From Acidobacteriota bacterium (GTDB lineage Bacteria; Acidobacteriota; Terriglobia; Bryobacterales; Bryobacteraceae), in assembly GCA_016213775.1 (NCBI GenBank), contig JACQZR010000297.1, positions 1 to 34,054 on the forward strand: a stretch of 34,054 nt of DNA. Direction: 5' to 3'. The notes below the pieces were generated by a model, which was given only the letters and a program-made list of their open reading frames with translations, did not search any database and had not been told where the DNA came from. Position numbers and translations under genes: made by a program. This document shows, piece by piece, positions 7,198 to 32,980 of this stretch. Each line of letters opens with the position of its first letter. Position 1 is the first letter of the stretch.

Positions 7198-8310
7198 ATG
7201 CGCAGCCCATACTTATCTGCTCTGTTCCTGACAGTCGCCGCCGGCAGTGGCAACGCTATTGAACCGGCCAATCCGAATGCCTCGCAAAGTGCGCGCAAGG
7301 TGCTGAAGTATCTTTATGACCTCCCCAACCGCAAGGACAACCGGCTGATCTCGGGTCACCTGGCGGGCGGCTCCACCGGTCCCGGCGTGCAGGATGGAGG
7401 CTACCGGTTCAGGATGAGTGAGATCAACTACCTGCACGAGGTCTCCGGCCAGTGGGTCGGGTTGATCGGCGCCGACTACTGCGTGGGCTGGATCGACTAT
7501 CCGAATCCGCTCGAAAGCCAGATGTACTACAAGGACGTCAACCGGGGGTTGATCGACTATTGGAACAAAGGCGGCTTGGTCGCGATCACCCACCATCAGT
7601 TCGATCCGCGCGAGTTGTACACCGACGGCGGCCAGGCTTTCTTCCGCCAGGCGAAGACGCGACTGGATATCAGCCTCGTCTACACGCCCGGCACCACCGA
7701 GTACGACAACTTTCGCGTCATCATGGACCGCTGGGCGGAGGGTCTGCAGGAGCTGGAAGACCACGGCGTCGTGGTACTGTGGAGGCCCTTCAACGAGGCG
7801 ACCCACGACGGCAAATGGTGGGGTGTTGCTCCACCCGAATCTTTCAAGAAGCTCTACCGCTACACGTTCGATTACATGACCCGCGTCAAGGGACTCGACA
7901 ACCTCCTTTGGGTCTATGATGGGCATGCGCTCAAAGGCGTCAACGCGTTTACGCTCTCCCACTACCCCGGCGACGAGTTTGTGGACGTCGTCGGTCTCAC
8001 CATGAATTGGGATTCAGGGGAGCCTCTCCAGCCAACTCACCCCTATCCCAACAAGGTGTTCGCTTGTGTCGAGTTCAACGTGCGCACGCAACTGCCAGGC
8101 CACACGATCCAGCGGGAATACGACTATATGAAGAAGCTGGAGACAGTGAAGACGCACTTGCCGTACGCCTCGTATTTCATGAGCTGGGACCGGATCTGGG
8201 GCCCGTACGGCCGCGGAACACCCGAGAGCGTCCGCCAGCTCTACAACGATCCTTGGGTCGCCAATCGCGGAGAGATCCCCTGGCAGAAGGTTGACCTCAA
8301 GCGCCGGTAG
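7198..8310 (+). CDS. Secreted GH26-like glycoside hydrolase (beta-mannanase type)
   Basis: About 370 residues, a (beta/alpha)8 enzyme of the GH26 kind, most of whose members are endo-beta-1,4-mannanases, with some xylanases and lichenases. The leader MRSPYLSALFLTVAAGSGNA is a short Sec signal peptide. Evidence for GH26: an early NRLISGHLAGG, GLIGADYC, the LVAITHHQFDP strand, the acid/base motif VVLWRPFNE with E200 followed by KWWG, and a candidate nucleophile E292 in FACVEFN; the 92-residue spacing fits the family. The ATG at 7198 is preferred over an upstream ATG at 6976, since the extra 74 residues would be translated from the repeat-rich promoter region. The M14 peptidase gene follows after 24 bp. 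The precise substrate is not shown by sequence. Confidence 0.82.
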   Translation: MRSPYLSALFLTVAAGSGNAIEPANPNASQSARKVLKYLYDLPNRKDNRLISGHLAGGSTGPGVQDGGYRFRMSEINYLHEVSGQWVGLIGADYCVGWIDYPNPLESQMYYKDVNRGLIDYWNKGGLVAITHHQFDPRELYTDGGQAFFRQAKTRLDISLVYTPGTTEYDNFRVIMDRWAEGLQELEDHGVVVLWRPFNEATHDGKWWGVAPPESFKKLYRYTFDYMTRVKGLDNLLWVYDGHALKGVNAFTLSHYPGDEFVDVVGLTMNWDSGEPLQPTHPYPNKVFACVEFNVRTQLPGHTIQREYDYMKKLETVKTHLPYASYFMSWDRIWGPYGRGTPESVRQLYNDPWVANRGEIPWQKVDLKRR

Positions 8311-8334
8311 GCAGCAGCCTTTAAACTGGCGTCT

Positions 8335-9516
8335 ATGAAGCGAAGAGCCTTCGTCACAGCCGCCGCCGTCGCAGCAGCGCCCGCACAGGTGCAACCCCGG
8401 CGCGATTTTAAGGATATTCCCGAGGATTTTCTGCGCGAGCCCGACACCATCCCGCCCTTCTGGGTGGGCTCAGTGCAGGAGGTTACCGGGTTCCTGGACG
8501 CGAGGGTGCGCAAAGGCAAGGTCGCGGCAATCGGCAAAACCGCCGGTGGGCGTCCCATCCGCGCAGTCTTCTACGGCACTCCACGGGCGCGACGGGGCAG
8601 CACCACCTTCTCCGGATCGCTCGGCTTCCGGGACGTGAAGGCTTACCTCGGGCCCGATTCCGCTAAGAAAGTGTACTGGGGGATGTCCTCCGTGCACGGC
8701 GGCGAGTTTGAAGGAATCGTGGGCACGGTGAACCTGCTGGCGGTGATCGAGACCGGAAAGGATCTGCGCGGGCGTGAATGGCCTGAGATCACCGCCGCGG
8801 CAGAGAAGATCGACCGGCTGATCCTGATTCCAATCGCTAACGTGGATGGCCGCGCCCGCGTGCCGCTCCGCATGATCCGCCATCAAGGCACGTCGGACCG
8901 GGTTCACGAGTACTTCAACACGGGCGCCAAAGCGGACGGGTCCAATCTCGGCTGGCCCCAATGCAAGGAGTTCATCCCCCTCGATTTCACCAAGGTTCAG
9001 TTTCCCGGCGGCTATCCCAACGATGCCGGAGTCAACATCCAGCACGACGACTTCTTCGGTGTTCGGCAGCCCGAAACGGACGCACTGCTGGCGCTGGCGG
9101 CTCGCGAACGCCCGGACTTGACGATGAACATGCATACGGGAGCGCAGTTCATCCACCCGTTGCGATCATTCATCGAACCCGCACTCATGCCGTGGTTTGA
9201 AACGCTCTACCGCAGGATGATGAAGCGCTTCGCAATGGCCGGCTTGCAGCCGACTCGTGATGGCGAGCGCGAGTCGGATCCTGCGCGGGAGCGCATGAGC
9301 ACCTTCAACCTCGATACCGCCATCAACCTGCACTGCGGGGCGCTGGCGGTGCTGGTGGAGTCACCGGCTCATAATCACTCCAACGCCAAAAGAGACGGCA
9401 AGCTGGTCAACTTCACGCCGGAGGAACTGTTGGATGCTCAGCTCATCTGCCACCAGGAGGCCATGAAGTTCCTGGTGGAAACCGGTGGCCGGGTGAAATG
9501 GACCCCTCGCGCGTAG
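8335..9516 (+). CDS. Exported M14-family zinc metallopeptidase
   Basis: About 393 residues of the zinc carboxypeptidase (M14) family. Zinc ligands H121 and E124 are in VHGGEFEG, the third ligand H267 is in NMHTGAQF, and a late catalytic-type glutamate E342 is in VLVESPAHNH; these are in the order and spacing expected. The N-terminus MKRRAFVTAAAVAAAPAQ begins with a twin-arginine pair and an alanine-rich stretch, suggesting Tat export. M14 enzymes remove C-terminal residues from peptides, and some relatives cut amide bonds in cell-wall or side-chain substrates. Placed 24 bp after the GH26-like gene and 72 bp before the first receptor, it is probably co-transcribed with them. In this setting it may trim peptide parts of a glycoconjugate (inference). 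Confidence 0.85.
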   Translation: MKRRAFVTAAAVAAAPAQVQPRRDFKDIPEDFLREPDTIPPFWVGSVQEVTGFLDARVRKGKVAAIGKTAGGRPIRAVFYGTPRARRGSTTFSGSLGFRDVKAYLGPDSAKKVYWGMSSVHGGEFEGIVGTVNLLAVIETGKDLRGREWPEITAAAEKIDRLILIPIANVDGRARVPLRMIRHQGTSDRVHEYFNTGAKADGSNLGWPQCKEFIPLDFTKVQFPGGYPNDAGVNIQHDDFFGVRQPETDALLALAARERPDLTMNMHTGAQFIHPLRSFIEPALMPWFETLYRRMMKRFAMAGLQPTRDGERESDPARERMSTFNLDTAINLHCGALAVLVESPAHNHSNAKRDGKLVNFTPEELLDAQLICHQEAMKFLVETGGRVKWTPRA

Positions 9517-9588
9517 CCCCAAAAAACAGGCAACTCTCCGCGCGTAATCGTCTAGAATGAATGCAGCGTGTAAGGGGGTCGCGCCGAA

Positions 9589-12500
9589 TTGCGTCTGGTG
9601 TTGGGCTGCCTCGGGGTTGCTCTGCTGGCGATTGGTGCAGGCGGTACTTTGTCCGCGCAGACGCGAGCCGCACGCCTCACCGGCATCATTACGGATTCAT
9701 CGGGAGCCGTCGTGATTGCGGCCCGCATTGTCGCCACCAATCCCGACACCGGCATCAAGCGCACCGCCCAATCCAATAATCAGGGCGTTTATGTTCTGCC
9801 GTTGCTTGACCCGGGCAACTACGGTCTTCTGGTTAGCAAAGAAGGCTTCCGCTCGGTCAGCCGGACCGGAGTCGCTTTGCACGTGAACGACTCGGTGCAA
9901 GTCGACTTCACCTTGGAAGTCGGCATTCTGGCGGAGGTTGTCACGGTAAACGCCGGCACACCTGTGCTGGAGGCCACTGGAGCCAGCCAGAGCGTGGTGA
10001 TCGGAAATGTCAGGATCGCCAACCTGCCGTTGAACGGCCGCAACGCCTACCAGCTTTCGGCGCTCGCGCCAGGTGTGATTCCGGGCAGCGGATTCGAGGA
10101 AGCGGTCACCATCAACCGCATGAACAACATCAACGTGAATGGCGGGGCCAGCTTCAACAATGAGGTGCTGCTCGATGGCGCCTCCAATGTCATCGCCGGT
10201 CATAACCAGATTGCGCTGACTCCTTCGGCCGACACGGTTCAGGAATTCCGCGTGCAGACCACACAGTATTCGGCTGAGTTCGGCCGCACCGGTGGAGGGG
10301 TGGTCAATGTGGCCACCAAGTCCGGCACTAACGAATTCCACGGGACTGCCTATCACTACCTGCGCAACAAGGTTCTCAAGGCCAACAACTTCTTCAACAA
10401 CCGCGCCAGCGTCGCGCGTGCGCCTTTCGTACACAACCAGTTTGGCGCCACTGCGGGCGGACCGGTCGTCCGCAACCGCTCATTCGTGTTCCTGGGATAT
10501 GAGGGCTACCGCGTCCGTCAAGCGCAGAACTTCACCGGCAGTGTGCCAACTGAAGCGCAGCGGCGCGGGGACTTCAGCCGGACCTTCACCAGCGACGGCC
10601 AACCAGTCGTGATCTACGATCCCTACACCACGCGCCTGATCAATGGGGCCTGGCGGCGGGATTCCTTTCCCGCCCATCTTATTCCCGCTTCGAGATTCGA
10701 TCCGGTGGCGGTGAAGGCGACGCCCTACTATCCGCTGCCGAACCAGCCGGGCATCGGAGCGTCGGCTGCGGGGAACTTCCTCTCCAACGCCTCGGCGACA
10801 GACGATCTGAATATGTTGACCGGCCGGGTGGATCACGCCTTCAGCCAGGGCAACCGGCTCTTCGTAAGGGCCAGCCGCAACGGCCGCCTGCAGGGTCCGC
10901 CGAATTTCTTCGGCAACCTCGCCACGTCCAACTCCTTCGGGCCGACCAGCGGCGTGGACTGGCACGTGACTGCCAACGATACGCACACATTCAACGCCCA
11001 AACTGTCCTCGAACTCCGGGCTGGCTACGCCCTCAATGCCGAGGAGCGCGAACCGGAAAGCCTGGGATTCGATCTGACCTCCCTGGGGCTGCCTGCGGCC
11101 TTCCAAGCGCAGGCACAGGCGCGCTACTTCCCAACCATTTCCACCGGCTACAGCATCCTCGGTCCTAGCTCTTTCAGCTATTGGGGGCAAGGCAGCCAGA
11201 CACGCTCGCTCGCAGGCAGCCTCACTCACGTGCGCGGCCGGCACACCCTGAAGGCGGGCGGTGAGGCGCGCATCCTGAACCACAACTCGTGGCAGGCGCC
11301 CTCGGCTTCAGGTGTCTTCAATGCGACGGCTCTGATGACGAGGGGACCCGACCCGGACCTCGCGTCTCGCTCCGCCGGAGACGGTTACGCCTCATTCCTG
11401 CTCGGCACATTGAGCGGAGCACAAGCGCGCAAGACTGCGGACACGGCCTACTGGAACACCTATTGGGCCGTCTATCTCCAAAACGACATCCGCGTCCTGT
11501 CGAACCTCGTGTTGAACCTGGGGCTCCGTTACGGCTATGAGACGCCGCGTGCAGAGCGCTGGAACCGTCTGGCCTGGTTCAACCCTTCCATTGCGAACCC
11601 GGTTGCGAACGACATCGCCTGGAGCGGCAGTCCGATCCGGGGTGGGCTGCAATTCGCCGGCGTGGACGGCCCGCGCGGGTGGTCGGAACCGGATCGCAAC
11701 AACGTTGAGCCGCGTTTCGGCTTTGCCTGGCAGGCGGTCCGGAACATGGTGCTCCGCGGCGGTTATGGGATCAGCTACCTCAGCAATGGTACGTCGCACA
11801 ATGGCTACGGCGCCGGCCAGGAAGGATTTAGCAGAGCCACGAGCGAAGTCTTCACGCCAGACGGGCGCACGGCGATAAAGCGGCTGCACGAGGCATTTGC
11901 CGGCGGCCTGCTCGAGCCAACCGGATCAAGCCTCGGCCCGTACACGCTATTGGGATCGTCCATCAACGCCAACCTGCGAAACCTGCGAGTCGGCTACAGC
12001 CAGCAGTGGAGCCTCAACGTTCAGCGCGAGCTTCCTGGCGGCTGGCTGCTCGAAGCAGGCTATGCCGGCAGCCGGGGCGTGAAGATCCCTACGACGTTCG
12101 CTATGAACCAGCTCAGTGCGGAGCAAATGCAGTTGGGAGATGCGCTTCTGGAGAATGTCTCCAACCCGTTCTTCGGCCACCCCGCGGTAAGCGGCGCCCT
12201 GGCCGGGAGAACCATCCAACGGCGTCAGCTTCTGCGTCCCTATCCGCAGTTCGAGAACGTCTCATTCCCATTTCGCGAGGCTGGCAGTTCCACTTTTCAC
12301 TCCTTCCAGGCACGCGTGGAGAGACGGTCGGCGCATGGCCTGGACCTCTTGGCGTCCTACACCAATTCCAAGCTGATTTCCGACAGCACCAGCGGCAAGC
12401 CGTTTGTCGGTGATGACCAGCCGGGCGCACAGAACGCCTACAACCTCCGGGCGGAACGGTCCGTAGCGCCGCAGGACGTATCGCAACGGCTCAGCGCTTC

Positions 12501-12987
12501 CGCGCTTTACGAGCTTCCGTTCGATAGGGGCGGGCGCCTGCTGGGAGGCTGGCAGTTGAACGCGATCGCCACTCTCTCCACAGGGCAAGTGATCTCGGTC
12601 GGCACTGCCAACGAGTCGTTCGCCTACAACCAGGGTGCGCGCCCGCATTCGACGGGGCGTAGCGCCGCCTCTTCCACACCCTCGATCGATCGCTGGTTCG
12701 ATACATCGGCTTTCGTGCAGCCGGCACGCTTCACCTTCGGCAACCTCGGCCGCACGCTGCCCGATGTCCGTACAGACGGGATTGCCAACCTCGATTTCGG
12801 GATTCTCAAACACTTTCAGCTTGTCGAGCGCCTGAAGCTACAGTTCCGCGCGGAATTCTTCAATGCGCTCAACAGCCCTCGCTTCGGGCGCCCGGGAGAG
12901 AACCACTTCGCCAATAACTTCGGCGTAGTAAGCGCCCAGGCCAACGCTCCACGCGAGATTCAGTTCGGGCTCAGGCTGATTTTCTAG
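9589..12987 (+). CDS. Oar-like TonB-dependent receptor, copy 1 (paralogue of copy 3)
   Basis: A 1132-residue outer-membrane receptor. A signal peptide ends in GAGGTLSAQ. Residues about 22-105 form a carboxypeptidase-regulatory-like beta-sandwich (ITDSSGAVVIAARIVATNPDTG, then YGLLVSKEGFRS). The plug domain follows with NLPLNGRNAYQLSALAPG, GGASFNNEVLLDGA, and QYSAEFGRTGGGVVN. The remainder is a 22-stranded-barrel-type region (LNLGLRYGYETPR, ELPFDRGGRLLGG, LQFRAEFFNALNSPRFG) ending in LRLIF with a terminal aromatic, as needed for barrel insertion. The start is TTG 9589 with AAGGGGG about 10 nt upstream; no ATG gives a complete leader. These receptors take up large substrates with TonB energy. 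It closely resembles copy 3 over its whole length. Confidence 0.92.
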   Translation: MRLVLGCLGVALLAIGAGGTLSAQTRAARLTGIITDSSGAVVIAARIVATNPDTGIKRTAQSNNQGVYVLPLLDPGNYGLLVSKEGFRSVSRTGVALHVNDSVQVDFTLEVGILAEVVTVNAGTPVLEATGASQSVVIGNVRIANLPLNGRNAYQLSALAPGVIPGSGFEEAVTINRMNNINVNGGASFNNEVLLDGASNVIAGHNQIALTPSADTVQEFRVQTTQYSAEFGRTGGGVVNVATKSGTNEFHGTAYHYLRNKVLKANNFFNNRASVARAPFVHNQFGATAGGPVVRNRSFVFLGYEGYRVRQAQNFTGSVPTEAQRRGDFSRTFTSDGQPVVIYDPYTTRLINGAWRRDSFPAHLIPASRFDPVAVKATPYYPLPNQPGIGASAAGNFLSNASATDDLNMLTGRVDHAFSQGNRLFVRASRNGRLQGPPNFFGNLATSNSFGPTSGVDWHVTANDTHTFNAQTVLELRAGYALNAEEREPESLGFDLTSLGLPAAFQAQAQARYFPTISTGYSILGPSSFSYWGQGSQTRSLAGSLTHVRGRHTLKAGGEARILNHNSWQAPSASGVFNATALMTRGPDPDLASRSAGDGYASFLLGTLSGAQARKTADTAYWNTYWAVYLQNDIRVLSNLVLNLGLRYGYETPRAERWNRLAWFNPSIANPVANDIAWSGSPIRGGLQFAGVDGPRGWSEPDRNNVEPRFGFAWQAVRNMVLRGGYGISYLSNGTSHNGYGAGQEGFSRATSEVFTPDGRTAIKRLHEAFAGGLLEPTGSSLGPYTLLGSSINANLRNLRVGYSQQWSLNVQRELPGGWLLEAGYAGSRGVKIPTTFAMNQLSAEQMQLGDALLENVSNPFFGHPAVSGALAGRTIQRRQLLRPYPQFENVSFPFREAGSSTFHSFQARVERRSAHGLDLLASYTNSKLISDSTSGKPFVGDDQPGAQNAYNLRAERSVAPQDVSQRLSASALYELPFDRGGRLLGGWQLNAIATLSTGQVISVGTANESFAYNQGARPHSTGRSAASSTPSIDRWFDTSAFVQPARFTFGNLGRTLPDVRTDGIANLDFGILKHFQLVERLKLQFRAEFFNALNSPRFGRPGENHFANNFGVVSAQANAPREIQFGLRLIF

Positions 12988-13038
12988 CCACGCACTTCTT
13001 GTCCCCCGCCCCATCGCCAAAGTAGCACATGCATACAC

Positions 13039-16000
13039 ATGCAGAGTTGTATCATTGCGGTTCTGTTGCTCGGCTTGGCGCTGCACACGGCCGGAGCCCA
13101 GCCGTCCGCCGGAACGATCACGGGGATCGTCGCGGACTCCTCCGGCGCGTCTATCGCCGGTTGTGAGGTTCTCATTACCAACAGCGATACCGGTGTCGCG
13201 CGGCGCACGCGAACGAACGCCGAGGGTGTCTTCGTAGCGCCAGGTCTCATCTCCGGTCCGTACCAGGTGGAGATGCAGGCGTCGGGGTTTCGCAGGAAAC
13301 TGTTCCGGCGCGTCGTATTGCAGCTCGGCCAGGAACTGCGGCTGGATACTACACTGGAACTCGGTCCTGTCGCCGAGTCGGTGGATGTCACCGCCGAGAT
13401 CTCCCCACTGCAGCAGGAAACGGCCGAGGTCAGCGATACGTTTACCACGGACCAGGTTCGCGACATGCCGCTCAACAGCCGGAATCCGCTGGGCATTCTC
13501 GATCTGGCAGCGGGTGTGACAGCCGCTGGCGACGATCCCAGCAAACTGGGCTACGACTCCTATGCCACGTTCAACGGCAGCCAGGCGCTGGGGAATTCCT
13601 TCCAAATCGACGGCGCCTCTGTGCAGCATGTGACTGGCTGGGTGGAATCGGTCGGGTCCATCGAATCCATTTCCGAGTTCAAGGTCTTGTCCCATACCTA
13701 CTCAGCCGAATTCGGGCGCACCTCCGGCGGTGTGGTGACCTTCGCGGTGCGCAGTGGGACGAACAAACTGCACGGCAGCGCTTACGAGTACCAGCGCAAC
13801 ACCAGGTTCAACGCCAACAACTGGGCCAGCAATGCCCGAGGTATCGAGGAGCCAACCCGCAGCCGCAACGAGTTTGGGGCCACGCTGGGCGGCCCCGTGC
13901 CCGGCATGAAGCGCAAACTGTTCTACTTCGCGAGCTACGAAGGCCAGGTCGACAATGCACCTGTCACCTTCACCCGTACCATTCCCGAACTTACGTTACG
14001 CGGCGGCGACTTCAGCGCTACGCCCGTGGTTGTCAAGGATCCCCTGTCGGGGCAACCCTTCGCCGGAAACGCGATTCCTGCCAGCCGTCTGGACCCCGCT
14101 GCCGTCAAGCTGATGAGTCTGTTCCCGGCGCCAAACACAGAGGGCACGCTGGCCGCGCGCTATGGCATCCACACGAGCAATTGGGTACGTGCCGCCGCCA
14201 ACCGCCTCTTCTTCAATTACGGCATCATGCGGCTGGACTACAACGCCACCAACAAGGACAAACTGTTCCTGACGTTTTCGCACATCAACGAAGACCGGGA
14301 CTGGGCGCAGGACTTCGAGAGTCCCATCAACTCGCAAGCGAGCCCGGCTTGGCGGAATATGCGCCGCGCCACCTTCAGCTACTCCCGCTTTGTGCGCCCG
14401 CACCTGATGAACGAACTCATCTTGACTGCACAGCGGGACCCGTTAAAGGATCTGCCGCGATACGCCGGCTACGATGTCACCAAAGAACTGGGCATTCAGC
14501 GAAGGGTCGGGGATTCAATCCCCAACATCACTCTCTCCGGAGGCTATGGCACTTACGGCAATAGCAAGGAGCGGCGCCACATCAACCAGCCCATCGGGTT
14601 GAGCGACGCCGTCACCTGGGTGCGCGGACGCCACACCATGAAGTTCGGAGCACAGATCTATCAGACCCAATACTGGTATCACGGCACGGAGCTGAGCGAC
14701 AACAGCGGGTCCTACACCTTCACGGGCGAGGTCACCGGCGGACTGAACAACCCCGTCAATTCGCTCGCGGATCTGTTGTCGGGAAACGTCAAGACCGCGC
14801 TCGTCCGCGTCCTCCAGATCCCCGTGAACCGCATGAACTATGCGGCCGGCGTGTTCTTCAATGACACCTGGAAGGTCACGCGCCGGCTGACCCTGAACCT
14901 CGGGTTGCGGCAGGACATGGAGACACGTCAGATCATCAAGAACGATGTCTACTCACGAGTGGATCCTGGGACCGGAGACTTGCTCGTTCCCGGACGCAAC
15001 GCCAGCCGCAATCTCAACCTATCCACGCATTGGAACAGCGTGGCGCCTCGTTTCGGCACGGCCTATTCGCTCGGCGACAAGACCGTCATCCGCACGGGCG
15101 TGGCGCTTTTTTATTCAACCTTCTGGGTGAATAACGGCACTCTGGTCACCTACCCTGGCTGGACCGTAAGCCAGGCGTTTCCCGACCAGGGACTGGGCAA
15201 GGCGCAGCCATTCACGTTCTCGCAGGGTTTCCCAGTGGAGTCGGTGACTGGGGTTAGCGATCCGCTCGAGGTGTTTCGCAGCGCCACCCCGCAAAAACCC
15301 CTGACGGTGGAGAGCGTCACCTATCGGCAGTCCGAAGGCTTGCCGCGCAGCCTGCAGTGGAATTTCGGCATCCAGCGAAAGCTGCCTTTTCGGAGCGTCA
15401 TCGAGACGGCCTACGTCGCCAGCCGCGCTGATCGCCTGGCACGCTCGACGCCAGGCAACAGCCCGACGCTCGACCGCGCGCCCGAGGCCGTGATTCAACG
15501 AAAGCCCATCCAGCAACTGCGGCCATTTTCGAACGTCGGCGCCTTCAATGTAGTCAGCTACGACGGCACGGCCGACTACCACTCGCTTCAAATCAAGGTC
15601 AACCGCCGCTTCAGCGGCGGCTTCAGTGTGAATGCCAACTTCACCTTCTCGAAGAACATGGACAGCTTCTCCAACTATCAGGGGTCGTACCAGATTCCGT
15701 GGCAGTTCCCCGAGATCGAGCACGCTCTCTCGACGTTGGACCGGACGCGCATGCTGACCATCGGGTGGCTGTGGCGCCTGCCGTTCGGTAAAGGCCAACC
15801 ACTGTTCGGCGGCAATCGCCTGTTCTCGGCTGTTCTCGGCGGTTTCCAGTTCAACGGCATCATGAAGGCGAACGACGGCATGCCTCTGACGATTCGCCAG
15901 AGCAACACGAACACGATCCTGTCGGCGCAAAGGCCCGATGTCATCGATCCCAGCAACCTGAGCGGCAGAGTGGCCGAACCGGCGTTCCTCGGCGCCAACC

Positions 16001-16305
16001 GCGTCTGGCTGATCGAACCCGGGAGTCCCGGCTTTCCGTTCCAGCCGTCGAGCAACGTGGGAATCGGCAACCTGGGACGCAACACTACGCGAGCGCCGGG
16101 TTCGCTCAATTTCAATCTCTCCCTGTTCCGCGAGTTCCGGGCCACCGACACAGTCAAGCTCCAACTTCGCGTCGAAGCATTCAACGCCATGAACCACGTC
16201 AATTTCCTGAGGCCCGATGTGAACATCTCGAACGCCGCATTCGGACGCATCTCGAACGCCTCCCCGGCCCGCCAGTTGCAGCTCGGCCTGCGGATGTCGT
16301 TTTAG
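13039..16305 (+). CDS. Oar-like TonB-dependent receptor, copy 2 (divergent)
   Basis: 1088 residues with the same layout: signal peptide MQSCIIAVLLLGLALHTAGA, a regulatory-like beta-sandwich (ITGIVADSSGASIAGCEV, then GPYQVEMQASGFRRK), a plug with DMPLNSRNPLGILDLAAG and TYSAEFGRTSGGVV, and a long barrel with GAQIYQTQYWY, LTLNLGLRQDMETR, LPFGKGQPLFGG and LRVEAFNAMNHVNF, ending in LGLRMSF. It differs clearly from its two neighbours: NSRN replaces NGRN and barrel sequences diverge throughout, so it probably binds another ligand or another part of the same ligand. ATG 13039 has no strong ribosome-binding site; ACATGCA is repeated at 13027 and 13037, the second copy covering the start codon. Gaps of 51 and 69 bp to the flanking receptors suggest one transcript. 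Confidence 0.92.
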   Translation: MQSCIIAVLLLGLALHTAGAQPSAGTITGIVADSSGASIAGCEVLITNSDTGVARRTRTNAEGVFVAPGLISGPYQVEMQASGFRRKLFRRVVLQLGQELRLDTTLELGPVAESVDVTAEISPLQQETAEVSDTFTTDQVRDMPLNSRNPLGILDLAAGVTAAGDDPSKLGYDSYATFNGSQALGNSFQIDGASVQHVTGWVESVGSIESISEFKVLSHTYSAEFGRTSGGVVTFAVRSGTNKLHGSAYEYQRNTRFNANNWASNARGIEEPTRSRNEFGATLGGPVPGMKRKLFYFASYEGQVDNAPVTFTRTIPELTLRGGDFSATPVVVKDPLSGQPFAGNAIPASRLDPAAVKLMSLFPAPNTEGTLAARYGIHTSNWVRAAANRLFFNYGIMRLDYNATNKDKLFLTFSHINEDRDWAQDFESPINSQASPAWRNMRRATFSYSRFVRPHLMNELILTAQRDPLKDLPRYAGYDVTKELGIQRRVGDSIPNITLSGGYGTYGNSKERRHINQPIGLSDAVTWVRGRHTMKFGAQIYQTQYWYHGTELSDNSGSYTFTGEVTGGLNNPVNSLADLLSGNVKTALVRVLQIPVNRMNYAAGVFFNDTWKVTRRLTLNLGLRQDMETRQIIKNDVYSRVDPGTGDLLVPGRNASRNLNLSTHWNSVAPRFGTAYSLGDKTVIRTGVALFYSTFWVNNGTLVTYPGWTVSQAFPDQGLGKAQPFTFSQGFPVESVTGVSDPLEVFRSATPQKPLTVESVTYRQSEGLPRSLQWNFGIQRKLPFRSVIETAYVASRADRLARSTPGNSPTLDRAPEAVIQRKPIQQLRPFSNVGAFNVVSYDGTADYHSLQIKVNRRFSGGFSVNANFTFSKNMDSFSNYQGSYQIPWQFPEIEHALSTLDRTRMLTIGWLWRLPFGKGQPLFGGNRLFSAVLGGFQFNGIMKANDGMPLTIRQSNTNTILSAQRPDVIDPSNLSGRVAEPAFLGANRVWLIEPGSPGFPFQPSSNVGIGNLGRNTTRAPGSLNFNLSLFREFRATDTVKLQLRVEAFNAMNHVNFLRPDVNISNAAFGRISNASPARQLQLGLRMSF

Positions 16306-16374
16306 GTTTCGCACTCCGCTTGTCCCCCGGGGCGCCTCGCCGCCGCCACATTCGCCTCAGAAGGAGAATGTCCA

Positions 16375-19300
16375 ATGAGGTCGGCGACTCGCATCGCGTG
16401 GGTTCTTCTATTGAGCGTCGCTACAGTGTACGGCCAGGGACGTACCGCCCAACTGACCGGTCGTATCACCGATTCGACTGGCGCCGTGGTTCCCGGCGCG
16501 CAGATGACAATCACGAACGTGGACACTGGCGTCGCCAGAATCGCTCAGTCCGACGGGAGCGGCAATTACGCGTTTCCGCTGCTCGAACCGGGGAAATACT
16601 CCGTGTCGGTCCAGCAAACCGGGTTCCGGCCGATCACTCGCGCCGGTATCACGCTGCATGTCAACGACTCGGTACAGATCGACTTCGCTCTGGAAGTTGG
16701 CGCGCTCAGCGAGAGCATCACTGTAGATTCGGCAGCCCCGCTGCTCCAGACCGCTGAAGCCAGCCAGAGCGTGGTGGTGGACAACCTCAAGATCATGAAC
16801 CTGCCGCTCAACGGACGTAACGCATACCAGTTGTCGGCGCTCACCCCGGGAGTGATTCCGGGATCCGGGTTCGAGGACTCCACTACTGTCAACCGGATGA
16901 ACAACATCAATGTCAACGGCGGAGCCAGCTTCAACACCGAGATCCTGCTGGACGGGGCATCCAACTCCATCCCCGGACACGGCCAGTTCGCGCTCACACC
17001 GTCCGTGGATACTGTGCAGGAATTCCGCGTGCAGACCACGCAATACTCGGCCGAGTTCGGTCGCACCAGCGGCGGCGTGGTGAACGTAGCCACCAAGTCC
17101 GGCACAAACGAATACCACGGGACCGCCTATCACTTTCTGCGAAACAAGGTTCTGAAGGCGAACAGCTTTGCCAATAACTGGTCCGGGCAGGAGCGCGGAC
17201 AGTTCGTCTACAACCAGTTCGGCGCCACTCTCGGCGGCCCGGTGATCAGGAACAAGACCTTCGTGTTCGGCGGCTACGAAGGATACCGGGTTCGCGAGGC
17301 GGGCGGCGGCGGCGGGACGGTGCCCACCGAGGCGATGCGCCGCGGCGATTTCAGCCAGCTTTCCACCAGCGACGGATTGCCGGTCGTCATTTACGATCCC
17401 TACACGTCGCGCCAGGTTGGGAATGCCTGGGTGCGGAATCCCTTCCCGGGAAATCAGATCTCCTCCTCCAGGTTCGATCCTGTGGCGGTGAAAGTCACAC
17501 CGAACTACCCCCTGCCGAACCGGGCGGGAATCGGCGCATCCATATCAGGTAACTTCACCTCCAACGCCTCGAGCGCGAATGACCTGAACATGATCACCGG
17601 GAGGCTTGATCACAACTTCAGCACAGCCAACCGGTTCTTTCTGCGGGCGAGCCGGAACAACAGCACCAACGTCCCACCCAACATCCTCGGCACCATCGCC
17701 ACATCGAATTCTTTCGGGCCGAGCTTCGGAAGAGACTGGCACGTCACTGCGAACGACACCCACACACTCACACCGTCGACTGTGCTCGAGATCCGTCTCG
17801 GTTATGCGCTGAACTGGGAAGACCGGCATCCGGAAAGCCTTGGCCTCGATCTGACCACGATTGGGCTCCCAGCCGCTCTCAATGCGCAGGCCCAGGCGCA
17901 TTATTATCCGAACTTCGCAGTGGGCGGCTACATGACCGTCGGCCCGAACACCTTTTCCTATTGGGGGCAGGGCAGTCAGACGCGGTCTCTGGTGGCCAGC
18001 CTGACGCACATGCGGGGCAAGCACCTGCTGAAGACAGGCGTCGAGGTGCGGATACTGAATCACAACTCGCGCCAGGTGGTGGCTGCCGCGGGGCAGTTTG
18101 CGTCGAATGGGAACATGACTCGCGGGCCCGATCCGGATCGCGTCTATCGGAACGCCGGCGACGGCTACGCTTCCTTCCTGCTGGGTACGTTGGCGTCCGG
18201 GTCAGCCCGCAAGACCGCCGATACTTCTTACCGGAACATCTACTACGCGGGCTACCTTCAGGACGACATCAAGGTAACGCCCGCACTGACCTTGAATCTG
18301 GGTGTCCGGTACAGCTACGAGACTCCGCGGACCGAGCGTTGGAACCGCCTGACGTGGTTCAACCCGGCCGTTGCGAACCCGATTCAGAAGGACATCACAT
18401 GGACTGGAGCTCCACTTGTGGGCGGCCTCGAGTTCGCCGGGGTGAACGGCCCGCGCGGCTGGTCGGATCCGGATTGGAATAACGTCGAGCCGCGTTTCGG
18501 TTTCGCCTACAAGGCGTTCGGAAAGCTTGTCCTGCGTGGCGGCTACGGCCTCAGCTACCTCGGTAACAGCACCTCGCACAACGGCTACGGCGCCGGGCAG
18601 GAGGGTTTCAGCGTCTTTACCCGCGAGGTCTACTCGGTGGATGGGCGAACCCCCGTGAAGCGCCTGAGCGAGTCCTTCTCCGGTGGGCTGCTGGAACCTA
18701 CCGGCGCCGCCGATGGGCTGTACACTCTGCTGGGCAACGCAGTGGTCGCCAACTTGCGCGACATCCGCGCTGGTTACAGCCAGCAGTGGAGCCTGGATCT
18801 CCAGCGCGAGTTCGGTGGTTGGCTGCTCGAAGCAGGCTACGTGGGCAGCCGCGGTGTAGGTGTCCCCATCAGCTACCCGATGAACCAACTCACCGAGGAG
18901 CAGTTGAAGCTGGGCAGCACGCTGCTGCAAAGCGTTTCGAATCCCTTCTACGGCCATCCCGCCGCCACCGGCACGCTGGCCAACAGGACCGTGCAGCGCG
19001 GCCAACTGCTGCGGCCATACCCTCACTTCACCGGTGTGAGCCTCCAATGGCGCGAGCGCGGCCAATCGACCTTCCACTCCTTTCAGGCGCGTGCCGAGAA
19101 ACGCTTCGCGAAGGGGTTCAGCCTGCTCGCATCCTATACCAACTCGAAGCTGCTTTCCGATACCAGCAGCGGAAAGTCGTTTGTGGGAGACGCGCAACCG
19201 GGTCCGCAGAACGCCTACGACATGCGGGCCGAGCGTTCCATCGCGCCGCAGGACATTTCCCAGCGTCTGGTTACCTCCTTTCTCTACGACCTGCCTTTGG

Positions 19301-19803: not shown

Positions 19804-19821
19804 GACAGGAGAATACTCGCG

Positions 19822-28665: not shown

Positions 28666-28680
28666 AAGAGGAGGATTACT

Positions 28681-29682
28681 ATGAACAAATTCGTATCGCG
28701 AAGGGGCTTCCTCGGGGCCCCCGCTGCGATGGGCCTGGCTTCCGCTTCAGCCGCGGAACGCTTGCCGAGGGAAGTCTGGATCGCAGCCATCGGCCAGATG
28801 GGACTTACCGCCCGAAACCCCGAGGAGATGAGTGGGAAGATGCTCCAGCGCATGGAGGAAGTCTTGCCGATGCGCCCGGACATCGTCTGTACCCCAGAGG
28901 TGTTTCCCTTCGCAGGTCTGACCGTGAAGCACCCTCCGCTGTCCGAGTGCGCAGAGGAGAAGACCGGACCGATCCTGGACCGCTACGCGGAGTTCGCGCG
29001 TCGTAACCGCTGCTATGTGATCTGCTCCACCTACACCAAGGAGAAGGGACGCTGCTACAACGCCGCGGTGCTCTTCGACCGGCAAGGCCGCTACGTGGGC
29101 GAGTACCGCAAGATCAACCCCACCGAAGGCGAACTGGACATAGGCGTCACTCCCGGCCCGCGGGTGCCACCGACATTCACCACGGACTTCGGCAAGATCG
29201 GGGTCCAAATCTGTTACGACATCAACTGGTACGAGAACTGGACTCGTCTCGGCGCCGCGGGAGCCGAGATCGTATTCTGGCCGTCGGCCTTCGGCGGAGG
29301 CATGATGCTCAACAGCCTGGCGTGGATGAACAAATGCCATGTCGTGTCGAGCACGCGCTTCCAGCATCCCACCAAAATCATCGACCCGCTTGGCACCGAC
29401 GTGATTGAGACCGGGCGCGCCGGGAACTGGATCTGTGGACCGGTCAACCTGGACATTGCGGTGATTCAAGGCGTGTACAACTTCGTCAAATTCCGTGAAA
29501 TCCGCAAGAAATACGGCCGCCGTTTCCGCTTCCGCATCCTTCACGTGGAGGCGCTGGCGACGATCGAAGGATGCAGTCCGGACGTGTCGGTCCCCGCAGT
29601 TCTGAAAGAGTTCGGCATCCCGACATCGCGGGAGATGATTGCGGCTTCAACAAAGGCTCAGGACGCGCGCCGCCCTTCGTGA
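28681..29682 (+). CDS. Exported nitrilase-superfamily amidohydrolase
   Basis: 333 residues of the carbon-nitrogen hydrolase superfamily, enzymes that split C-N bonds of amides, carbamoyl compounds or nitriles. The catalytic triad is complete: E73 in CTPEVFPF, K144 in EYRKINPT, and C178 in VQICYDINW, in the right order and spacing. The leader MNKFVSRRGFLGAPAAMGLASASA carries a clear twin-arginine motif, so the enzyme is probably exported folded by Tat; most members of this superfamily are cytoplasmic. GAGGAGG stands just upstream of ATG 28681, and the receptor gene ends 15 bp before. In a glycan-degrading locus it might remove an amide or carbamoyl substituent (inference). The exact branch of the superfamily cannot be settled by eye. 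Confidence 0.87.
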   Translation: MNKFVSRRGFLGAPAAMGLASASAAERLPREVWIAAIGQMGLTARNPEEMSGKMLQRMEEVLPMRPDIVCTPEVFPFAGLTVKHPPLSECAEEKTGPILDRYAEFARRNRCYVICSTYTKEKGRCYNAAVLFDRQGRYVGEYRKINPTEGELDIGVTPGPRVPPTFTTDFGKIGVQICYDINWYENWTRLGAAGAEIVFWPSAFGGGMMLNSLAWMNKCHVVSSTRFQHPTKIIDPLGTDVIETGRAGNWICGPVNLDIAVIQGVYNFVKFREIRKKYGRRFRFRILHVEALATIEGCSPDVSVPAVLKEFGIPTSREMIAASTKAQDARRPS

Positions 29683-29791
29683 GGGCCGCTCACAATGAAA
29701 GAATGTGATTTCCCGATGACCGCGATTGCGACGCGGCGGGCCAGGAGATCGGCAGAGCGTACGTCGTCTCGCGGGAGCGTAAGGAGGTACA
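29683..29791 (+). other. 109-bp intergenic region before the GH127-like gene
   Basis: No gene is seen here. It ends with AAGGAGG (29781-29787), 4 nt before GTG 29792, which sets the start of the next gene. It is among the longer gaps in the plus-strand series, so an internal promoter is possible, but no convincing -35/-10 pair was recognised. Confidence 0.5.
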
Positions 29792-31630
29792 GTGAATCCA
29801 ACTTCGCGGCGCGCCTTTCTACAGGCAGCCGGAGCGGCGCCGGTGGCGAACCGGCTTGCCGCCCAAACTCGCGTGCCCGCCGCGGGCGTTTGGCAGGGCC
29901 TGCCGCCCTCGCAGGTCGGCGGCATCCTCGGCGATCGGCTCGCGTTGTGGCGCGGTAAACGACTCTGGCATGCGGTGAAGAGCCCGTTTCTTCTCGAAGG
30001 ATTCGAATCGCCGCCGGGCAGCCACCCGTGGCAGGGCGAGCATTCCGGCAAGTGGCTTCACGCCGCTACGCTGGCATTTGAGCAGACCCGGGACCGGGCG
30101 ATCCTGCGCGCCCTGGAGAATACCGTCCGGCGCCTGATTGCGTCTCAGCAATCCAACGGCTACATCGGGACATACGCGCCGGCGCTTCGTTTCTGTGCTC
30201 CTCCGGGCAGGCACAGCCGCTCCTCATGGGACGTCTGGACCGCGCGCTACGTACTATACGGCCTGCTCTCTTATGAGCAATTTCATCCCGATGAGACGAT
30301 CGTCCGCGCGTGTGTTCGCCTGGGCGAATTGCTGCTGAACACGTACGGTCCGGGCAAGGCAGATTTGACGAGTGTCGGCACGCGGCACGGCCTATCGTCG
30401 ACCGTGCTGCTGGAATCGATCCTGATGTTGTACGAGCGCAGCAGAGAGCGGCGTTTCCTGGAGTTCGCGCAGCAGATTCACGAGTCGATGGAGGCGAATC
30501 CACACCTGCGACTCGTGGCCACCCTCACTTCGACTCAGGACGTCTCGGCGCCGGGCGATGGCAAAGCGTACCAGCTCATGGCGGTCCTCCTGGGTTACGT
30601 CCGGCTGTTCCGTCACACCGGACAAACGGACTACCTCAGCGCCGTGACCCGCGCTTGGGAGCGCATCCGCAACGAACATACCTTCGTGACCGGCGGGCCA
30701 TGGGCGTACAAGTCCGACGCCGTCAAGAATCACGAGTGCTTTGCGCGGCCCGAATATTTCCATCCGGCCAACCTGGTGGAAACCTGTTCCACCACTACCT
30801 GGGTGCAGCTTTCGCTCGAGCTCCTGAAGCTCACTGGAGAAGCGAAATACGGAGAAGAAGCCGAGCGCGCGCTGCTGAATCACCTGATCGGCGCGCAAGC
30901 GCCGAACGGGCGCGACTGGGCCTATTACAGCGCTGCCAATACAACCAAGCGGGACTACAACGATGTGCTCCACTGCTGTGGATCGAGCGGTCCGCGCGCG
31001 CTGGAGGTCTATGCATGTCACCTCATTGGGGCCGCAGGGGACGCTCTGTCCCTCAACACCTATCTGCCGCTCAGCGCCAGAATCGACCTGCCGCAGATCC
31101 CCGTGCGCGGTGTCAGGATCGAGGGGCGCTACCCCTTCGAGAGCCGGGCAATCGTTCGCTTCGAAATGGATCGGCCGGCCCGGTTCGCCGTCGATTTCCG
31201 GCTGCCGTCAGGCGGCATGCAGATGCGAGTGAAGATCGGTGGCGTCGAGCAGAAGCCAGACCCGCAGGCCTCCGGATTCCTGCGGCTGACGCGCACATGG
31301 AAACCCAACGACGTCGTGGAGGTGCAGTTCGAATTCCCGCTCCGCGCAACCATCCAGCGCGGGCGTGATGGAAGGGACTGGGCCGCCTTCACTCTGGGAC
31401 CGATTGCGCTTGCGCAGGGTTCACCGACGCCATCTGACGATTCACCGATCGTCAGGCCGGCGGCTTCCGACCCCACCGCCGGCCAGGCGTGGTTGGAACT
31501 ACTCCAGACGGCAGAGCCCGGATTCCGAATCAAGGGCACCCAGTACACCTTGATGCCGTATTCCCGAGCGGGAAGCGACGGCAGTTCAGTGCGGACCTAC
31601 TTCCCGTTGGAGCCGGAACGGAGAAAATGA
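29792..31630 (+). CDS. Exported GH127-like (DUF1680) beta-L-arabinofuranosidase
   Basis: 612 residues. The leader SRRAFLQAAGAAPVANRLAAQ is Tat-type. The body is an (alpha/alpha)6 barrel (EHSGKWLHAATLAFEQT, QQSNGYIGTYAP, WDVWTARYVLYGLLS) followed by beta-sandwich domains. The zinc/catalytic constellation known from Bifidobacterium HypBA1 (E338, C340, C417, C418) is matched by E330 and C332 in NLVETCSTTTW and C395-C396 in HCCGSSG; one of the cysteines is the nucleophile in that family. E315, in NHECF, is a candidate acid/base. The usual CCPPN motif reads CCGSS, so this is a divergent member and GH146-like relatives or another sugar specificity are possible. GTG 29792 is supported by AAGGAGG. 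It probably removes beta-linked arabinofuranose or a similar sugar from the glycan. Confidence 0.85.
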   Translation: MNPTSRRAFLQAAGAAPVANRLAAQTRVPAAGVWQGLPPSQVGGILGDRLALWRGKRLWHAVKSPFLLEGFESPPGSHPWQGEHSGKWLHAATLAFEQTRDRAILRALENTVRRLIASQQSNGYIGTYAPALRFCAPPGRHSRSSWDVWTARYVLYGLLSYEQFHPDETIVRACVRLGELLLNTYGPGKADLTSVGTRHGLSSTVLLESILMLYERSRERRFLEFAQQIHESMEANPHLRLVATLTSTQDVSAPGDGKAYQLMAVLLGYVRLFRHTGQTDYLSAVTRAWERIRNEHTFVTGGPWAYKSDAVKNHECFARPEYFHPANLVETCSTTTWVQLSLELLKLTGEAKYGEEAERALLNHLIGAQAPNGRDWAYYSAANTTKRDYNDVLHCCGSSGPRALEVYACHLIGAAGDALSLNTYLPLSARIDLPQIPVRGVRIEGRYPFESRAIVRFEMDRPARFAVDFRLPSGGMQMRVKIGGVEQKPDPQASGFLRLTRTWKPNDVVEVQFEFPLRATIQRGRDGRDWAAFTLGPIALAQGSPTPSDDSPIVRPAASDPTAGQAWLELLQTAEPGFRIKGTQYTLMPYSRAGSDGSSVRTYFPLEPERRK

Positions 31631-31693
31631 GGCACGCGCATCCGGGTCGAGCAGTCGTTTCTCCTTCAACGGCACTTGAAGGATAATTGACTC

Positions 31694-32980
31694 ATGCGCT
31701 GGACGCGTCGTGAATTGCTCCGTGTATCGACCGCCCTGCTGACGGGCGACCTGACATACGCCGGAGAGACACATCCGGTCTGGACATCACGGCCCACCGT
31801 TACGGTTGGGCCGAAAGATGCCGACATTACCGGCACAGGTGACAAGGCGATCCAGGCGGCTGTGGACCATATGGCGGCCAGTGGAGGCGGCACGGTTCGA
31901 CTCCTTCCCGGCGCCTACCACCTGCGCAACGCAGTCGATCTGCGGCGGGGAGTGCGGATCCTGGGGAGCGGGGCGGAGTCCGTGTTGCGGAAAGGCCCGC
32001 TGGCGAAAGCTATGCTCGCCGAAGATGCCGAGCCGTGGGACGAGGAGATCGTGCTGGCAGGAACGAGCGATCTCCGCGCCGGCGATGGCGTGGCGATTCG
32101 TGTGGACGATCCGTCGCAGGGCGGACGCCGCATCGTTCTGCGCACTCTGGTGGCACGAGACGGTAACCGCCTCAAACTCGACCAGGCTATGGACGTTGCC
32201 CGTTTCACACTGCGCGGAAATGCGCACGTCCTGACTCAGTATCCGCTGATTCGCGGCATTGGCGCGAGCAACGCGTCCGTAGAGAATCTCCTGCTCGATG
32301 GGAACAAGCAAAACAACGGCACGCTCGACCACTACTGGGGCAATCATCTCGGCTGCGTCTGGCTCGAGCGCAGCCATCGTGTGGCGCTGAAGTCGATTGT
32401 TGCGCGCAACTGCGCTTCAGACGGCCTCAGTTGGCAAACCTCTCATGACGTGTTGGTTGAGGACTGCCACTGCCTCGACAACGCCGGTTTCGGGATGCAC
32501 GCCGGCAGCGGGTCGCTGCGCCCGTTGGTGCGGAAGAACAGAATCGAGCGCAACTACATTGGTTTTTACTTTTGTTGGGGCGCCCGGCACGGAATCGTGG
32601 AACACAACACCATTACAGACAGCCAGACCTCGGGCGTTTCGATCGGGCAGAAGGATACTGACAACCTCGTCCATCACAACGAAATTCTCCGTAGTGGCGA
32701 GGCCGGCGTTCTATTCCGCTCCGTCGAACGCGCGCTCTGGCCGGATCGGAATCGTGTCGAAGCGAACCGTATCGTGGATAGCGGAAGTGAGAACGGCGTG
32801 GCCATCGATGTTCAGGCGGGTGCCGATGGCGTCGTGACTGGAAACGAGCTTCTGGAGACCCGCGGTGCGATGCGCCGAATCGGGCTGAAGATCGCTGCTG
32901 GCATCCGCAGCCTGAACGTGGCGGGTAATCGCTTCCGCGGGTTCGCCACTGAAATCGCCGATTCGCGCGAGCAGGCCTAA
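31694..32980 (+). CDS. Exported right-handed beta-helix protein (polysaccharide lyase/hydrolase-like)
   Basis: 428 residues. The N-terminus TRRELLRVSTALLTGDL is Tat-like. The mature part begins with a pectate-lyase-superfamily entry (KAIQAAVDHMAASGGGTVRLLPGAYHL) and goes on with repeated ~22-residue beta-helix rungs: VENLLLDGN, HDVLVEDCHCLDNAGFGMH, RKNRIERNYIGFYF, VEHNTITDSQTSGVSIG, VHHNEILRSGEAGVLF, VEANRIVDSGSENGVAI, VTGNELLETRG. Such folds occur in pectate lyases, polygalacturonases, alginate epimerases and several other polysaccharide-active families; no family-specific catalytic motif was recognised. AAGGA precedes ATG 31694. It is last of the plus-strand series, 63 bp after the GH127-like gene, and no clear terminator follows. 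Confidence 0.8.
   Translation: MRWTRRELLRVSTALLTGDLTYAGETHPVWTSRPTVTVGPKDADITGTGDKAIQAAVDHMAASGGGTVRLLPGAYHLRNAVDLRRGVRILGSGAESVLRKGPLAKAMLAEDAEPWDEEIVLAGTSDLRAGDGVAIRVDDPSQGGRRIVLRTLVARDGNRLKLDQAMDVARFTLRGNAHVLTQYPLIRGIGASNASVENLLLDGNKQNNGTLDHYWGNHLGCVWLERSHRVALKSIVARNCASDGLSWQTSHDVLVEDCHCLDNAGFGMHAGSGSLRPLVRKNRIERNYIGFYFCWGARHGIVEHNTITDSQTSGVSIGQKDTDNLVHHNEILRSGEAGVLFRSVERALWPDRNRVEANRIVDSGSENGVAIDVQAGADGVVTGNELLETRGAMRRIGLKIAAGIRSLNVAGNRFRGFATEIADSREQA

What the first reader, a model, noticed from the sequence alone, without database searches (positions are those of the whole stretch)
7198..32980. SusCD-less polysaccharide utilisation locus with four Oar-like receptors, sulfatase and amidohydrolase
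Twelve plus-strand genes with short gaps or overlaps combine GH26-like, GH127-like, DUF4038 apiosidase-like, an unassigned TIM-barrel hydrolase and a beta-helix enzyme with a sulfatase, an M14 peptidase, a secreted nitrilase-family enzyme and four 1.1-1.2 kDa-residue-class receptors (1088-1227 residues). Two more sulfatases lie just upstream on the other strand. Acidobacterial loci of this kind are poorly described compared with Bacteroidota PULs. The enzyme set suggests a sulfated, arabinose- or apiose-bearing glycan, possibly with amide or peptide parts; the substrate is inference.
Basis: partly seen in the sequence, partly recalled or inferred. Interest (0 to 1): 0.8.

Follow-up and report, generated by a model that had tools for sequence, protein, structure and literature searches.

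The report
Self-regulated sulfated-sugar uptake locus
This bacterium carries a cluster of sugar-cutting, sulfate-removing and import genes that appears to be switched on as one unit by its own dedicated regulator, probably to feed on a sulfate-bearing polysaccharide whose identity is still unknown.

Summary
The gene cluster is real and larger than described. The twelve plus-strand genes (7198-32980) are there, but the sulfatase at 19822-21498 is interrupted by an in-frame TAG; a relative has it intact. An ECF sigma factor, a zf-HC2 anti-sigma protein and two divergent sulfatases (795-6727) belong to the same unit. The main new result is a promoter-like motif, TGTCCSCC-N17/18-YACWT. It stands six times in this contig, each time just ahead of a gene and pointing at it (Sulf1, Sulf2, ECF, GH26, R2, R3), against 0.03 expected. 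The other 10.9 Mb of the genome holds nine matches, all within open frames. A Solibacteraceae MAG shares receptors, ECF, anti-sigma, sulfatases, barrel enzyme and GH26, with four such sites. I read it as a SusD-less glycan locus under a private ECF switch. The unassigned TIM barrel is a relative of GH96 alpha-agarase. The sulfatases resemble carrageenan and mannan sulfatases. The set is rare: 2 of 257 genomes of the order have full-length TIM.

The parts
795..2699 (-). S1 sulfatase Sulf1 (ORF; true start probably the GTG near 2594, because the promoter motif lies at 2601-2631), CAPTR active-site motif, twin-arginine leader TRRDAI
   Evidence: PF00884 E 3.6e-52; 67% to the L023 sulfatase; motifs; best solved 6prm exo-4S-kappa-carrageenan sulfatase E 1.4e-46
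2601..2631 (-). promoter-like motif ahead of Sulf1
2642..4135 (-). S1 sulfatase Sulf2 (start probably ATG at 4027), CTPTR motif, twin-arginine leader TRRHLL
   Evidence: PF00884 E 2.9e-63; best solved 6prm E 8.2e-79; start
4054..4083 (-). promoter-like motif ahead of Sulf2
4070..4118 (.). inverted repeat formed by the two divergent -35-like arms (14 nt, 93%, 21 nt apart); L023 has one at the same place (11 nt, 91%, 20 nt apart), with a G/C exchange in both arms
4105..4135 (+). promoter-like motif ahead of the ECF gene (autoregulation)
4174..4728 (+). ECF-type sigma factor
   Evidence: TIGR02937 E 2.8e-20; 60% to L023
4709..6727 (+). zf-HC2 anti-sigma protein with a long C-terminal part after a hydrophobic segment
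   Evidence: PF13490 E 4.2e-7; NCBIfam anti-sigma models matched but below cut-off; 44% to L023; segment read from the sequence
7154..7184 (+). promoter-like motif ahead of GH26
7198..8310 (+). GH26-family glycoside hydrolase, RPFNE motif
   Evidence: PF02156 E 1.4e-47; solved beta-1,4-mannanase 2qha E 7.6e-44; 66% in G139
8335..9516 (+). M14-type zinc carboxypeptidase-like protein, twin-arginine leader
   Evidence: PF00246 22.8 bits, cut-off 21.6; 59-70% relatives in 14 other genomes
9589..12987 (+). receptor R1 (CarboxypepD_reg + OMP_b-brl_4)
   Evidence: 67% to the L023 receptor
13000..13030 (+). promoter-like motif ahead of R2
13039..16305 (+). receptor R2
   Evidence: 28-29% to R1/R3
16321..16351 (+). 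promoter-like motif ahead of R3 and the genes behind it
16375..19803 (+). receptor R3, 66% to R1
   Evidence: 69% over 737 aa to the second receptor of G139
19822..21498 (+). S1 sulfatase S3, CTPSR motif, twin-arginine leader; broken by an in-frame TAG after residue 215; intact copy in L023
   Evidence: intact relative's best solved match 9fvt E 4e-72
21495..23357 (+). TIM-barrel enzyme related to GH96 alpha-agarase; start overlaps the S3 stop by 4 bp
   Evidence: 62% L023, 53% L024
23327..24985 (+). DUF5060 + Apiosidase-like (DUF4038) enzyme
   Evidence: PF13204 172.5 bits
24982..28665 (+). receptor R4 (divergent)
   Evidence: start from AAGGAGG and GTG
28681..29682 (+). nitrilase-family amidase (CYD site), twin-arginine leader
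   Evidence: PF00795 E 5.2e-29; 50% to a G139 gene in another receptor cluster
29792..31630 (+). GH127-like enzyme, ETC and HCC motifs, twin-arginine leader
   Evidence: PF07944 E 7.6e-37; motifs
31694..32980 (+). right-handed beta-helix protein, twin-arginine leader
   Evidence: PF13229 E 3.6e-27

Best explanation
The contig carries one regulon for the capture and breakdown of a sulfated glycan, run by its own ECF sigma / anti-sigma pair. Shown: the genes, the six copies of one bipartite promoter-like motif directly ahead of Sulf1, Sulf2, ECF, GH26, R2 and R3, and the same motif ahead of the matching ECF, sulfatase, GH26 and second-receptor genes in a relative. Inferred: the zf-HC2 protein holds the ECF sigma factor at the inner membrane; when substrate fragments arrive, the sigma factor is freed and starts the six units, the last of which (R3-S3-TIM-Apiosidase-R4-nitrilase-GH127-beta-helix) is a 16.6 kb run of genes. 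Seven of the ten non-receptor enzymes bear twin-arginine motifs near the start and are probably folded before export; GH26, TIM and the Apiosidase-like enzyme lack them. The four SusD-less receptors would import oligosaccharides, the sulfatases would remove sulfate, and the GHs would cut the chain. Substrate: most likely a sulfated hexan (galactan- or mannan-like), because the TIM enzyme is a GH96 relative, Sulf1/Sulf2 resemble carrageenan sulfatases and S3 resembles an S1_51 mannan sulfatase; this step is weak (about 0.35).
For: Six motif places in the 34,054-base contig, 0.03 expected (100 shuffles, largest 1); four in L023, 0.01 expected. Whole genome: 15 places, 6 of them here; the backward-read control gives 2; the other 9 places lie in open frames of 170-928 codons on one strand or the other. 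In G139, 4 of 5 places are in the homologous contig, control 3. The sites at 13000 and 16321 were not used to make the pattern. Weights from the four L023 sites alone rank the six window sites 1-6 (16.1-20.7, next 14.7). Shared gene set with L023: receptor 67%, anti-sigma 44%, ECF 60%, Sulf1 67%, TIM 62%, GH26 65%, S3 74/67%. A paralogous ECF, zf-HC2, receptor, sulfatase run lies elsewhere in this genome.
Against: No expression data. M14, Apiosidase-like, nitrilase, GH127 and beta-helix have no counterpart in the 21,845 bases of L023, and R2 and R4 match its receptor only at 27-30%. No high-scoring site stands ahead of R1, R4, nitrilase, GH127 or beta-helix. The first, looser form of the motif (TGTCCSCCRAA with one mismatch) was not clearly above chance: 6 against 2.7 in the window, 6 of 100 shuffles reaching it, and 5 against 1.7 in L023. 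The nine places elsewhere exceed the backward control of 2, so some might be real. One sulfatase is broken here. None of the four receptors shows an STN signalling domain at E 0.001, so how the signal reaches the anti-sigma protein is open. The pattern was made partly from the sites it then finds, and the spacer penalties were chosen after seeing window sites.
Confidence: 0.77

Rival explanations
1. The cluster is a loose neighbourhood: a 10.96 Mb genome with some 80 sulfatase places and a great many Oar-like receptors will bring such genes together, and only part of them work together.
For: 82 sulfatase places and 65 scored receptors of 258 first-look candidates. Within 5 kb in any orientation there are 8 receptor-sulfatase pairs among these (no null was run for that count). 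M14 has 59-70% relatives in 14 other genomes, in none of which a GH26 or TIM match lies on the same contig except G167:C57, 130 kb apart.
Against: Six promoter motifs in the locus; tight same-strand spacing; receptor-sulfatase tandems 4 against 0.09; gene set shared with L023.
Confidence: 0.12
2. The regulon serves sulfate scavenging or remodelling of the cell's own sulfated exopolysaccharide rather than use of a foreign glycan as food.
For: Three sulfatases under one switch, an amidase and a peptidase with export motifs; no sugar catabolism gene and no inner-membrane sugar transporter among the 16 window proteins scanned with Pfam.
Against: Four outer-membrane receptors and several GH families point to import of fragments; the relative's locus adds a sodium:solute symporter.
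Confidence: 0.1
3. The substrate is an arabinose- or apiose-bearing plant glycan such as RG-II.
For: Apiosidase Pfam 172.5 bits and GH127 Pfam 127.6 bits, both over cut-off; a weak aceric-acid-hydrolase match.
Against: Closest solved relatives are distant; neither gene is in the L023 stretch; the shared core is sulfatases, GH26 and a GH96 relative; sulfatases are not expected for RG-II (recalled).
Confidence: 0.12

Closest known systems
Carrageenan PUL of Zobellia galactanivorans and its relatives in other phyla (PMC5698469; passages and figure legends seen)
   Same: Sulfatases (S1_19 among them) with GH127 enzymes in one gene run without a susCD pair; the legend of its Fig. 9 also lists AA3 and fumarate reductase/succinate dehydrogenase genes; a GMC oxidoreductase and a fumarate-reductase-like flavoprotein occur in the L021/L023 locus
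   Different: The paper names four phyla with such PULs, Acidobacteriota not among them (0 hits for 'acidobacteri' in the main text); regulators named in the passages seen are cgr, GntR-like and LuxR-like, not an ECF pair; here receptors lie inside the cluster
GH96 alpha-agarase (9m0b; Cm-AGA, PMC11311870, abstract and passages seen)
   Same: Barrel and C-terminal part align over 500 positions, E 8.4e-39, the only solved sequence at E <= 1e-5; catalytic Asp994 (KLMFDTQTNSTR) falls on D168
   Different: 620 aa without the CBM6 modules the paper describes, low identity, and the second catalytic residue Glu1129 is not placed by the alignment
ECF/anti-sigma controlled glycan loci of Bacteroides (recalled; PMC3878776 seen in search listings only)
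   Same: A dedicated ECF/anti-sigma pair beside outer-membrane receptors and glycan enzymes
   Different: No SusD, CarboxypepD_reg receptors without a detected STN domain, zf-HC2 anti-sigma protein, several promoters of one motif inside one locus
S1_51 sulfatase OpSulf1 of the diatom sulfated-mannan PUL (9fvt, PMC13063451, passages seen)
   Same: Nearest solved relative of the intact S3 counterpart, E 4e-72 over 480 aa
   Different: That PUL is in marine Bacteroidota and the paper's main text has no 'GH26' (0 hits); the window copy is broken

Membership tests
Bacteroidota-type PUL | tandem SusC/SusD pair | tested here: not met
   PF07980 absent from the whole genome, 0 of 1
Bacteroidota-type PUL | contiguous, co-regulated glycan enzymes and outer-membrane transporter | tested here: inconclusive
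   contiguity shown; shared promoter motif; no expression data
ECF sigma / anti-sigma pair | sigma-70 ECF domain and adjacent anti-sigma with zinc-finger | tested here: met
   TIGR02937, PF13490, overlapping genes; membrane segment only read by eye
FecI/FecR-type cell-surface signalling | receptor with N-terminal STN signalling domain (recalled) | tested here: not met
   no STN family in R1-R4 at E 0.001; CarboxypepD_reg instead
GH96 alpha-agarase | sequence relation over the catalytic domain | tested here: met
   E 2.9e-23 single sequence, 8.4e-39 profile
GH96 alpha-agarase | catalytic Asp and Glu (Asp994/Glu1129 of Cm-AGA) | tested here: inconclusive
   Asp on D168, invariant in three sequences; Glu falls beside an alignment insert, E299 nearby
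GH96 alpha-agarase | hydrolysis of alpha-1,3 linkages of agarose | not testable with these tools
   needs an enzyme assay; predicted fold too poor to compare, pLDDT 47.5
S1 sulfatase | C-x-[PA]-x-R formylglycine motif (recalled) and PF00884 | tested here: met
   all three genes; S3 broken by TAG
S1_19 subfamily (Sulf1, Sulf2) | SulfAtlas subfamily assignment | tested here: inconclusive
   best solved matches are carrageenan sulfatases; a chain labelled S1-19 (9hh3) at E 3.9e-42 and 4.2e-73; SulfAtlas not available
GH127 beta-L-arabinofuranosidase | close relation to characterised enzymes | tested here: not met
   best solved E about 2e-12, partial; nearest relative in the order 35%
GH140 apiosidase | close relation to characterised apiosidases | tested here: inconclusive
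   8t9w E 7.4e-17 over 411 aa

The most novel reading that the evidence does not exclude
An acidobacterial glycan locus with a private ECF switch: one sigma factor whose promoter motif is confined to its own locus, firing six divergent and tandem units, with CarboxypepD_reg receptors (no STN domain) relaying substrate arrival to a large zf-HC2 anti-sigma protein, and acting on a sulfated glycan with an enzyme of a GH96-related family that no Pfam model recognises in this protein.
Probability: 0.35. Interest if true: 0.75.

Novelty: new variant of a known kind. Interest (0 to 1): 0.6.

Why it matters
This receptor-rich genome lacks the SusD mark by which glycan loci are usually found, so such loci are hard to delimit. 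A promoter motif concentrated in one locus gives a way to draw its borders from sequence alone and to predict co-regulation. The GH96 relative and the sulfatase mix also point to use of a sulfated glycan in a lineage known from soil (recalled), which can be tested with purified substrates.

Tried and rejected
Structure of the TIM enzyme: AlphaFold2 with three sequences gave pLDDT 47.5, so no fold search was made. Pfam at E up to 10 gave nothing for the window's TIM protein; among the two relatives one matched GH31 at 0.002 and one GH42 at 0.17. Sigma-70-type promoter scan: 2 found against 2.7 expected in 4000-19999 and 2 against 2.8 in 19700-34054 (bases 1-3999 not scanned). Terminator scan: 15 against 13.4 and 5 against 12.0 in the same stretches. 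Plasmid collection: no TIM relative. The genome-contig scan with two peptide patterns found two relatives, L023 and L024, among 107 pattern matches. The beta-helix proteins of the window and of G139:C28 are not clearly related (E 0.010). PADLOC scan of the nitrilase: nothing. None of the contigs of L037-L041 is among the 15 motif places; for L024 only the exact form TGTCCSCCRAA was looked for, with no match, and three of the six window sites would not match that form either. A site at 6715 first taken for the GH26 promoter lacks the -10-like part and was dropped for 7154. Paper searches for acidobacterial loci of this kind and for ECF with sulfatases in planctomycetes listed no report of one, judged from listings and abstract starts; the library lacks most subscription papers.


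Full report
What is there. The window is a whole contig (C225, 34,054 bases) of a 10.96 Mb, 314-contig genome that the tool rates 98.48% complete and 4.6% contaminated. Between 7198 and 32980 lie twelve plus-strand genes with gaps of at most 109 bp, three pairs overlapping. Pfam gives GH26, M14, three receptors, sulfatase, no family, Apiosidase with DUF5060, a fourth receptor, nitrilase, GH127 and beta-helix. The receptors have an N-terminal CarboxypepD_reg domain and an OMP_b-brl_4 barrel. SusD is absent from the genome. The sulfatase at 19822-21498 is broken by an in-frame TAG after residue 215; L023 holds an intact 552-residue counterpart. The next gene starts in the last bases of the sulfatase frame, so the stop may also weaken its translation (inference).

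The unit is larger. Upstream lie an ECF sigma gene, an overlapping zf-HC2 anti-sigma gene and two divergent sulfatases. Aligning 280 bases around the divergent sulfatase and ECF starts with the same stretch of L023 showed a conserved inverted repeat whose arms carry a G/C exchange on both sides. Each arm is the first half of a bipartite motif, TGTCCSCC-N17/18-YACWT. The pattern was written down from three window sites and four L023 sites and one more read by eye at 7154. The earlier single-box form with one mismatch allowed was only weakly above chance.

Test of the motif. The pattern matches six places in the window (0.03 expected) and four in L023 (0.01 expected). Two window sites, 13000 and 16321, were not used to make it; they lie between R1 and R2 and between R2 and R3 and point at R2 and R3. 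From the end of the YACWT element to the start codon there are 38 (ECF), 13 (GH26), 8 (R2), 23 (R3) and 26 (Sulf2, ATG at 4027) bases; Sulf1 would start at a GTG 6 bases on (read). In the whole genome there are 15 matches, six of them in this contig; the backward-read control gives 2. The nine others lie in open frames of 170 to 928 codons, 8 of 9 at 294 or more (stop to stop, either strand, and long open frames are common by chance at this G+C). Nine is more than the control's two, so a few outside targets are not excluded. In G139, 4 of 5 matches are in the homologous contig, control 3. Weights trained on the four L023 sites alone rank the six window sites first to sixth; I had seen window sites when I set the spacer penalties. 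With all ten sites as training set the six score 21.9-24.2 and the next place 14.6. No such site precedes R1, R4, nitrilase, GH127 or beta-helix, which would have to be transcribed from the GH26 and R3 promoters.

Relatives. In 257 genomes of the order (own included), 18 match the TIM protein, but only two over its full length: the window's own and G139, at 62%; the other 16 have only short matches of 28-40% identity. GH26: 35 of 257 match; G139 66% over nearly the full length, G123 and G124 35% and 33%, all others partial at 26-37%. Of the eleven other genomes of the genus, none matches GH26 or M14 and two have a short weak TIM match. G139:C56 is taken to be the named record JALSRK010000056.1, a Solibacteraceae MAG, from equal length, genes and motif places. 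Its locus holds: a second receptor (69% to R3 over 737 aa), receptor 67%, anti-sigma 44%, ECF 60%, Sulf1 67%, a DUF6298 protein, TIM 62%, GH26 65%, sodium:solute symporter, a fumarate-reductase-like flavoprotein, RraA-like, S3 74/67% and a further sulfatase. So a core is shared and the rest differs. M14 matches 18 of 257 genomes, 14 others at 59-70%, none on the contig of a TIM or GH26 match except G167:C57, 130 kb apart. The nitrilase matches 249 of 257; its best relative (50%) is in G139 on another contig, behind a receptor, an amidohydrolase, a GH109-like, an unassigned and a GH120-like gene. GH127 matches 153 of 257, the best at 35%.

The TIM enzyme. One solved sequence of 177,635 matches it well: alpha-agarase 9m0b, E 2.9e-23 alone and 8.4e-39 with a three-sequence profile. 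The catalytic Asp of Cm-AGA (Asp994, located through the primer table of PMC11311870) falls on D168, invariant in the three sequences; the Glu is not placed. A planctomycete MAG (L024, Sedimentisphaerales) carries a 53% relative in one frame with a beta-lactamase-type and a LamG domain, next to DUF6298 and an Apiosidase gene. In 397 genomes of that class 28 match the profile, L024's own genome included; the best of the others has E 2.5e-71.

Substrate. Sulf1 and Sulf2 are nearest to solved carrageenan sulfatases (6prm; S1_19 for that entry is recalled, 9hh3 is labelled S1-19), the intact S3 counterpart to OpSulf1, an S1_51 sulfatase of a diatom mannan PUL, GH26 to beta-mannanases. Solved structures are a biased sample (my judgement, not computed), so this is a lead. 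Galactan- or mannan-type sulfated glycan: about 0.35; arabinose or apiose glycan: about 0.12; the rest open.

Export. Seven of ten non-receptor enzymes (Sulf1, Sulf2, M14, S3, nitrilase, GH127, beta-helix) have a twin-arginine motif near the start; TIM and the Apiosidase-like enzyme do not, and the one match in the long GH26 frame lies ahead of the start at 7198 (motif recalled, no signal-peptide program run).

Generality. Elsewhere in the genome, C179 has ECF, zf-HC2, receptor and sulfatase in the same order, and receptor-sulfatase tandems occur four times against 0.09 expected. Only 65 of 258 receptor candidates were scored, so the count is a lower bound; the null model ignores operons and contig ends.

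Verdict. A real glycan regulon, a new variant of a known kind, with the co-regulation predicted rather than measured and the substrate open.

Noticed in passing
19822-21498: Sulfatase S3 broken by an in-frame TAG; one of two sulfatase matches listed for the genome with a stop inside (the other at C215, TGA). Real or assembly error unknown.
   Followed up: partly
L024:8657-12700: Planctomycete 1347-aa frame with a beta-lactamase-type domain, the GH96-related barrel and a LamG domain, next to DUF6298 and Apiosidase genes.
   Followed up: partly
L039 (G000:C179), 3327-10815: Second ECF, zf-HC2, receptor, sulfatase run in the same genome; C179 is not among the 15 motif places.
   Followed up: partly
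L050:7232-18547 (G139:C28): Another receptor cluster: receptor, amidohydrolase, GH109-like, unassigned, GH120-like, nitrilase; nitrilases may be a regular part of such loci.
   Followed up: partly
window 295-490, minus strand: Short pieces resembling parts of R1/R3 (54% over 22 aa, E 0.001): perhaps a decayed receptor at the contig edge, weak evidence.
   Followed up: partly
L021/L023: The relative's contig adds a sodium:solute symporter, a fumarate-reductase-like flavoprotein, an RraA-like protein and a GMC oxidoreductase; AA3 and FR/SR genes are listed in a figure legend for carrageenan PULs.
   Followed up: partly
whole genome G000: 82 sulfatase places and 258 first-look receptor candidates (65 scored, all over cut-off) in one genome.
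   Followed up: partly
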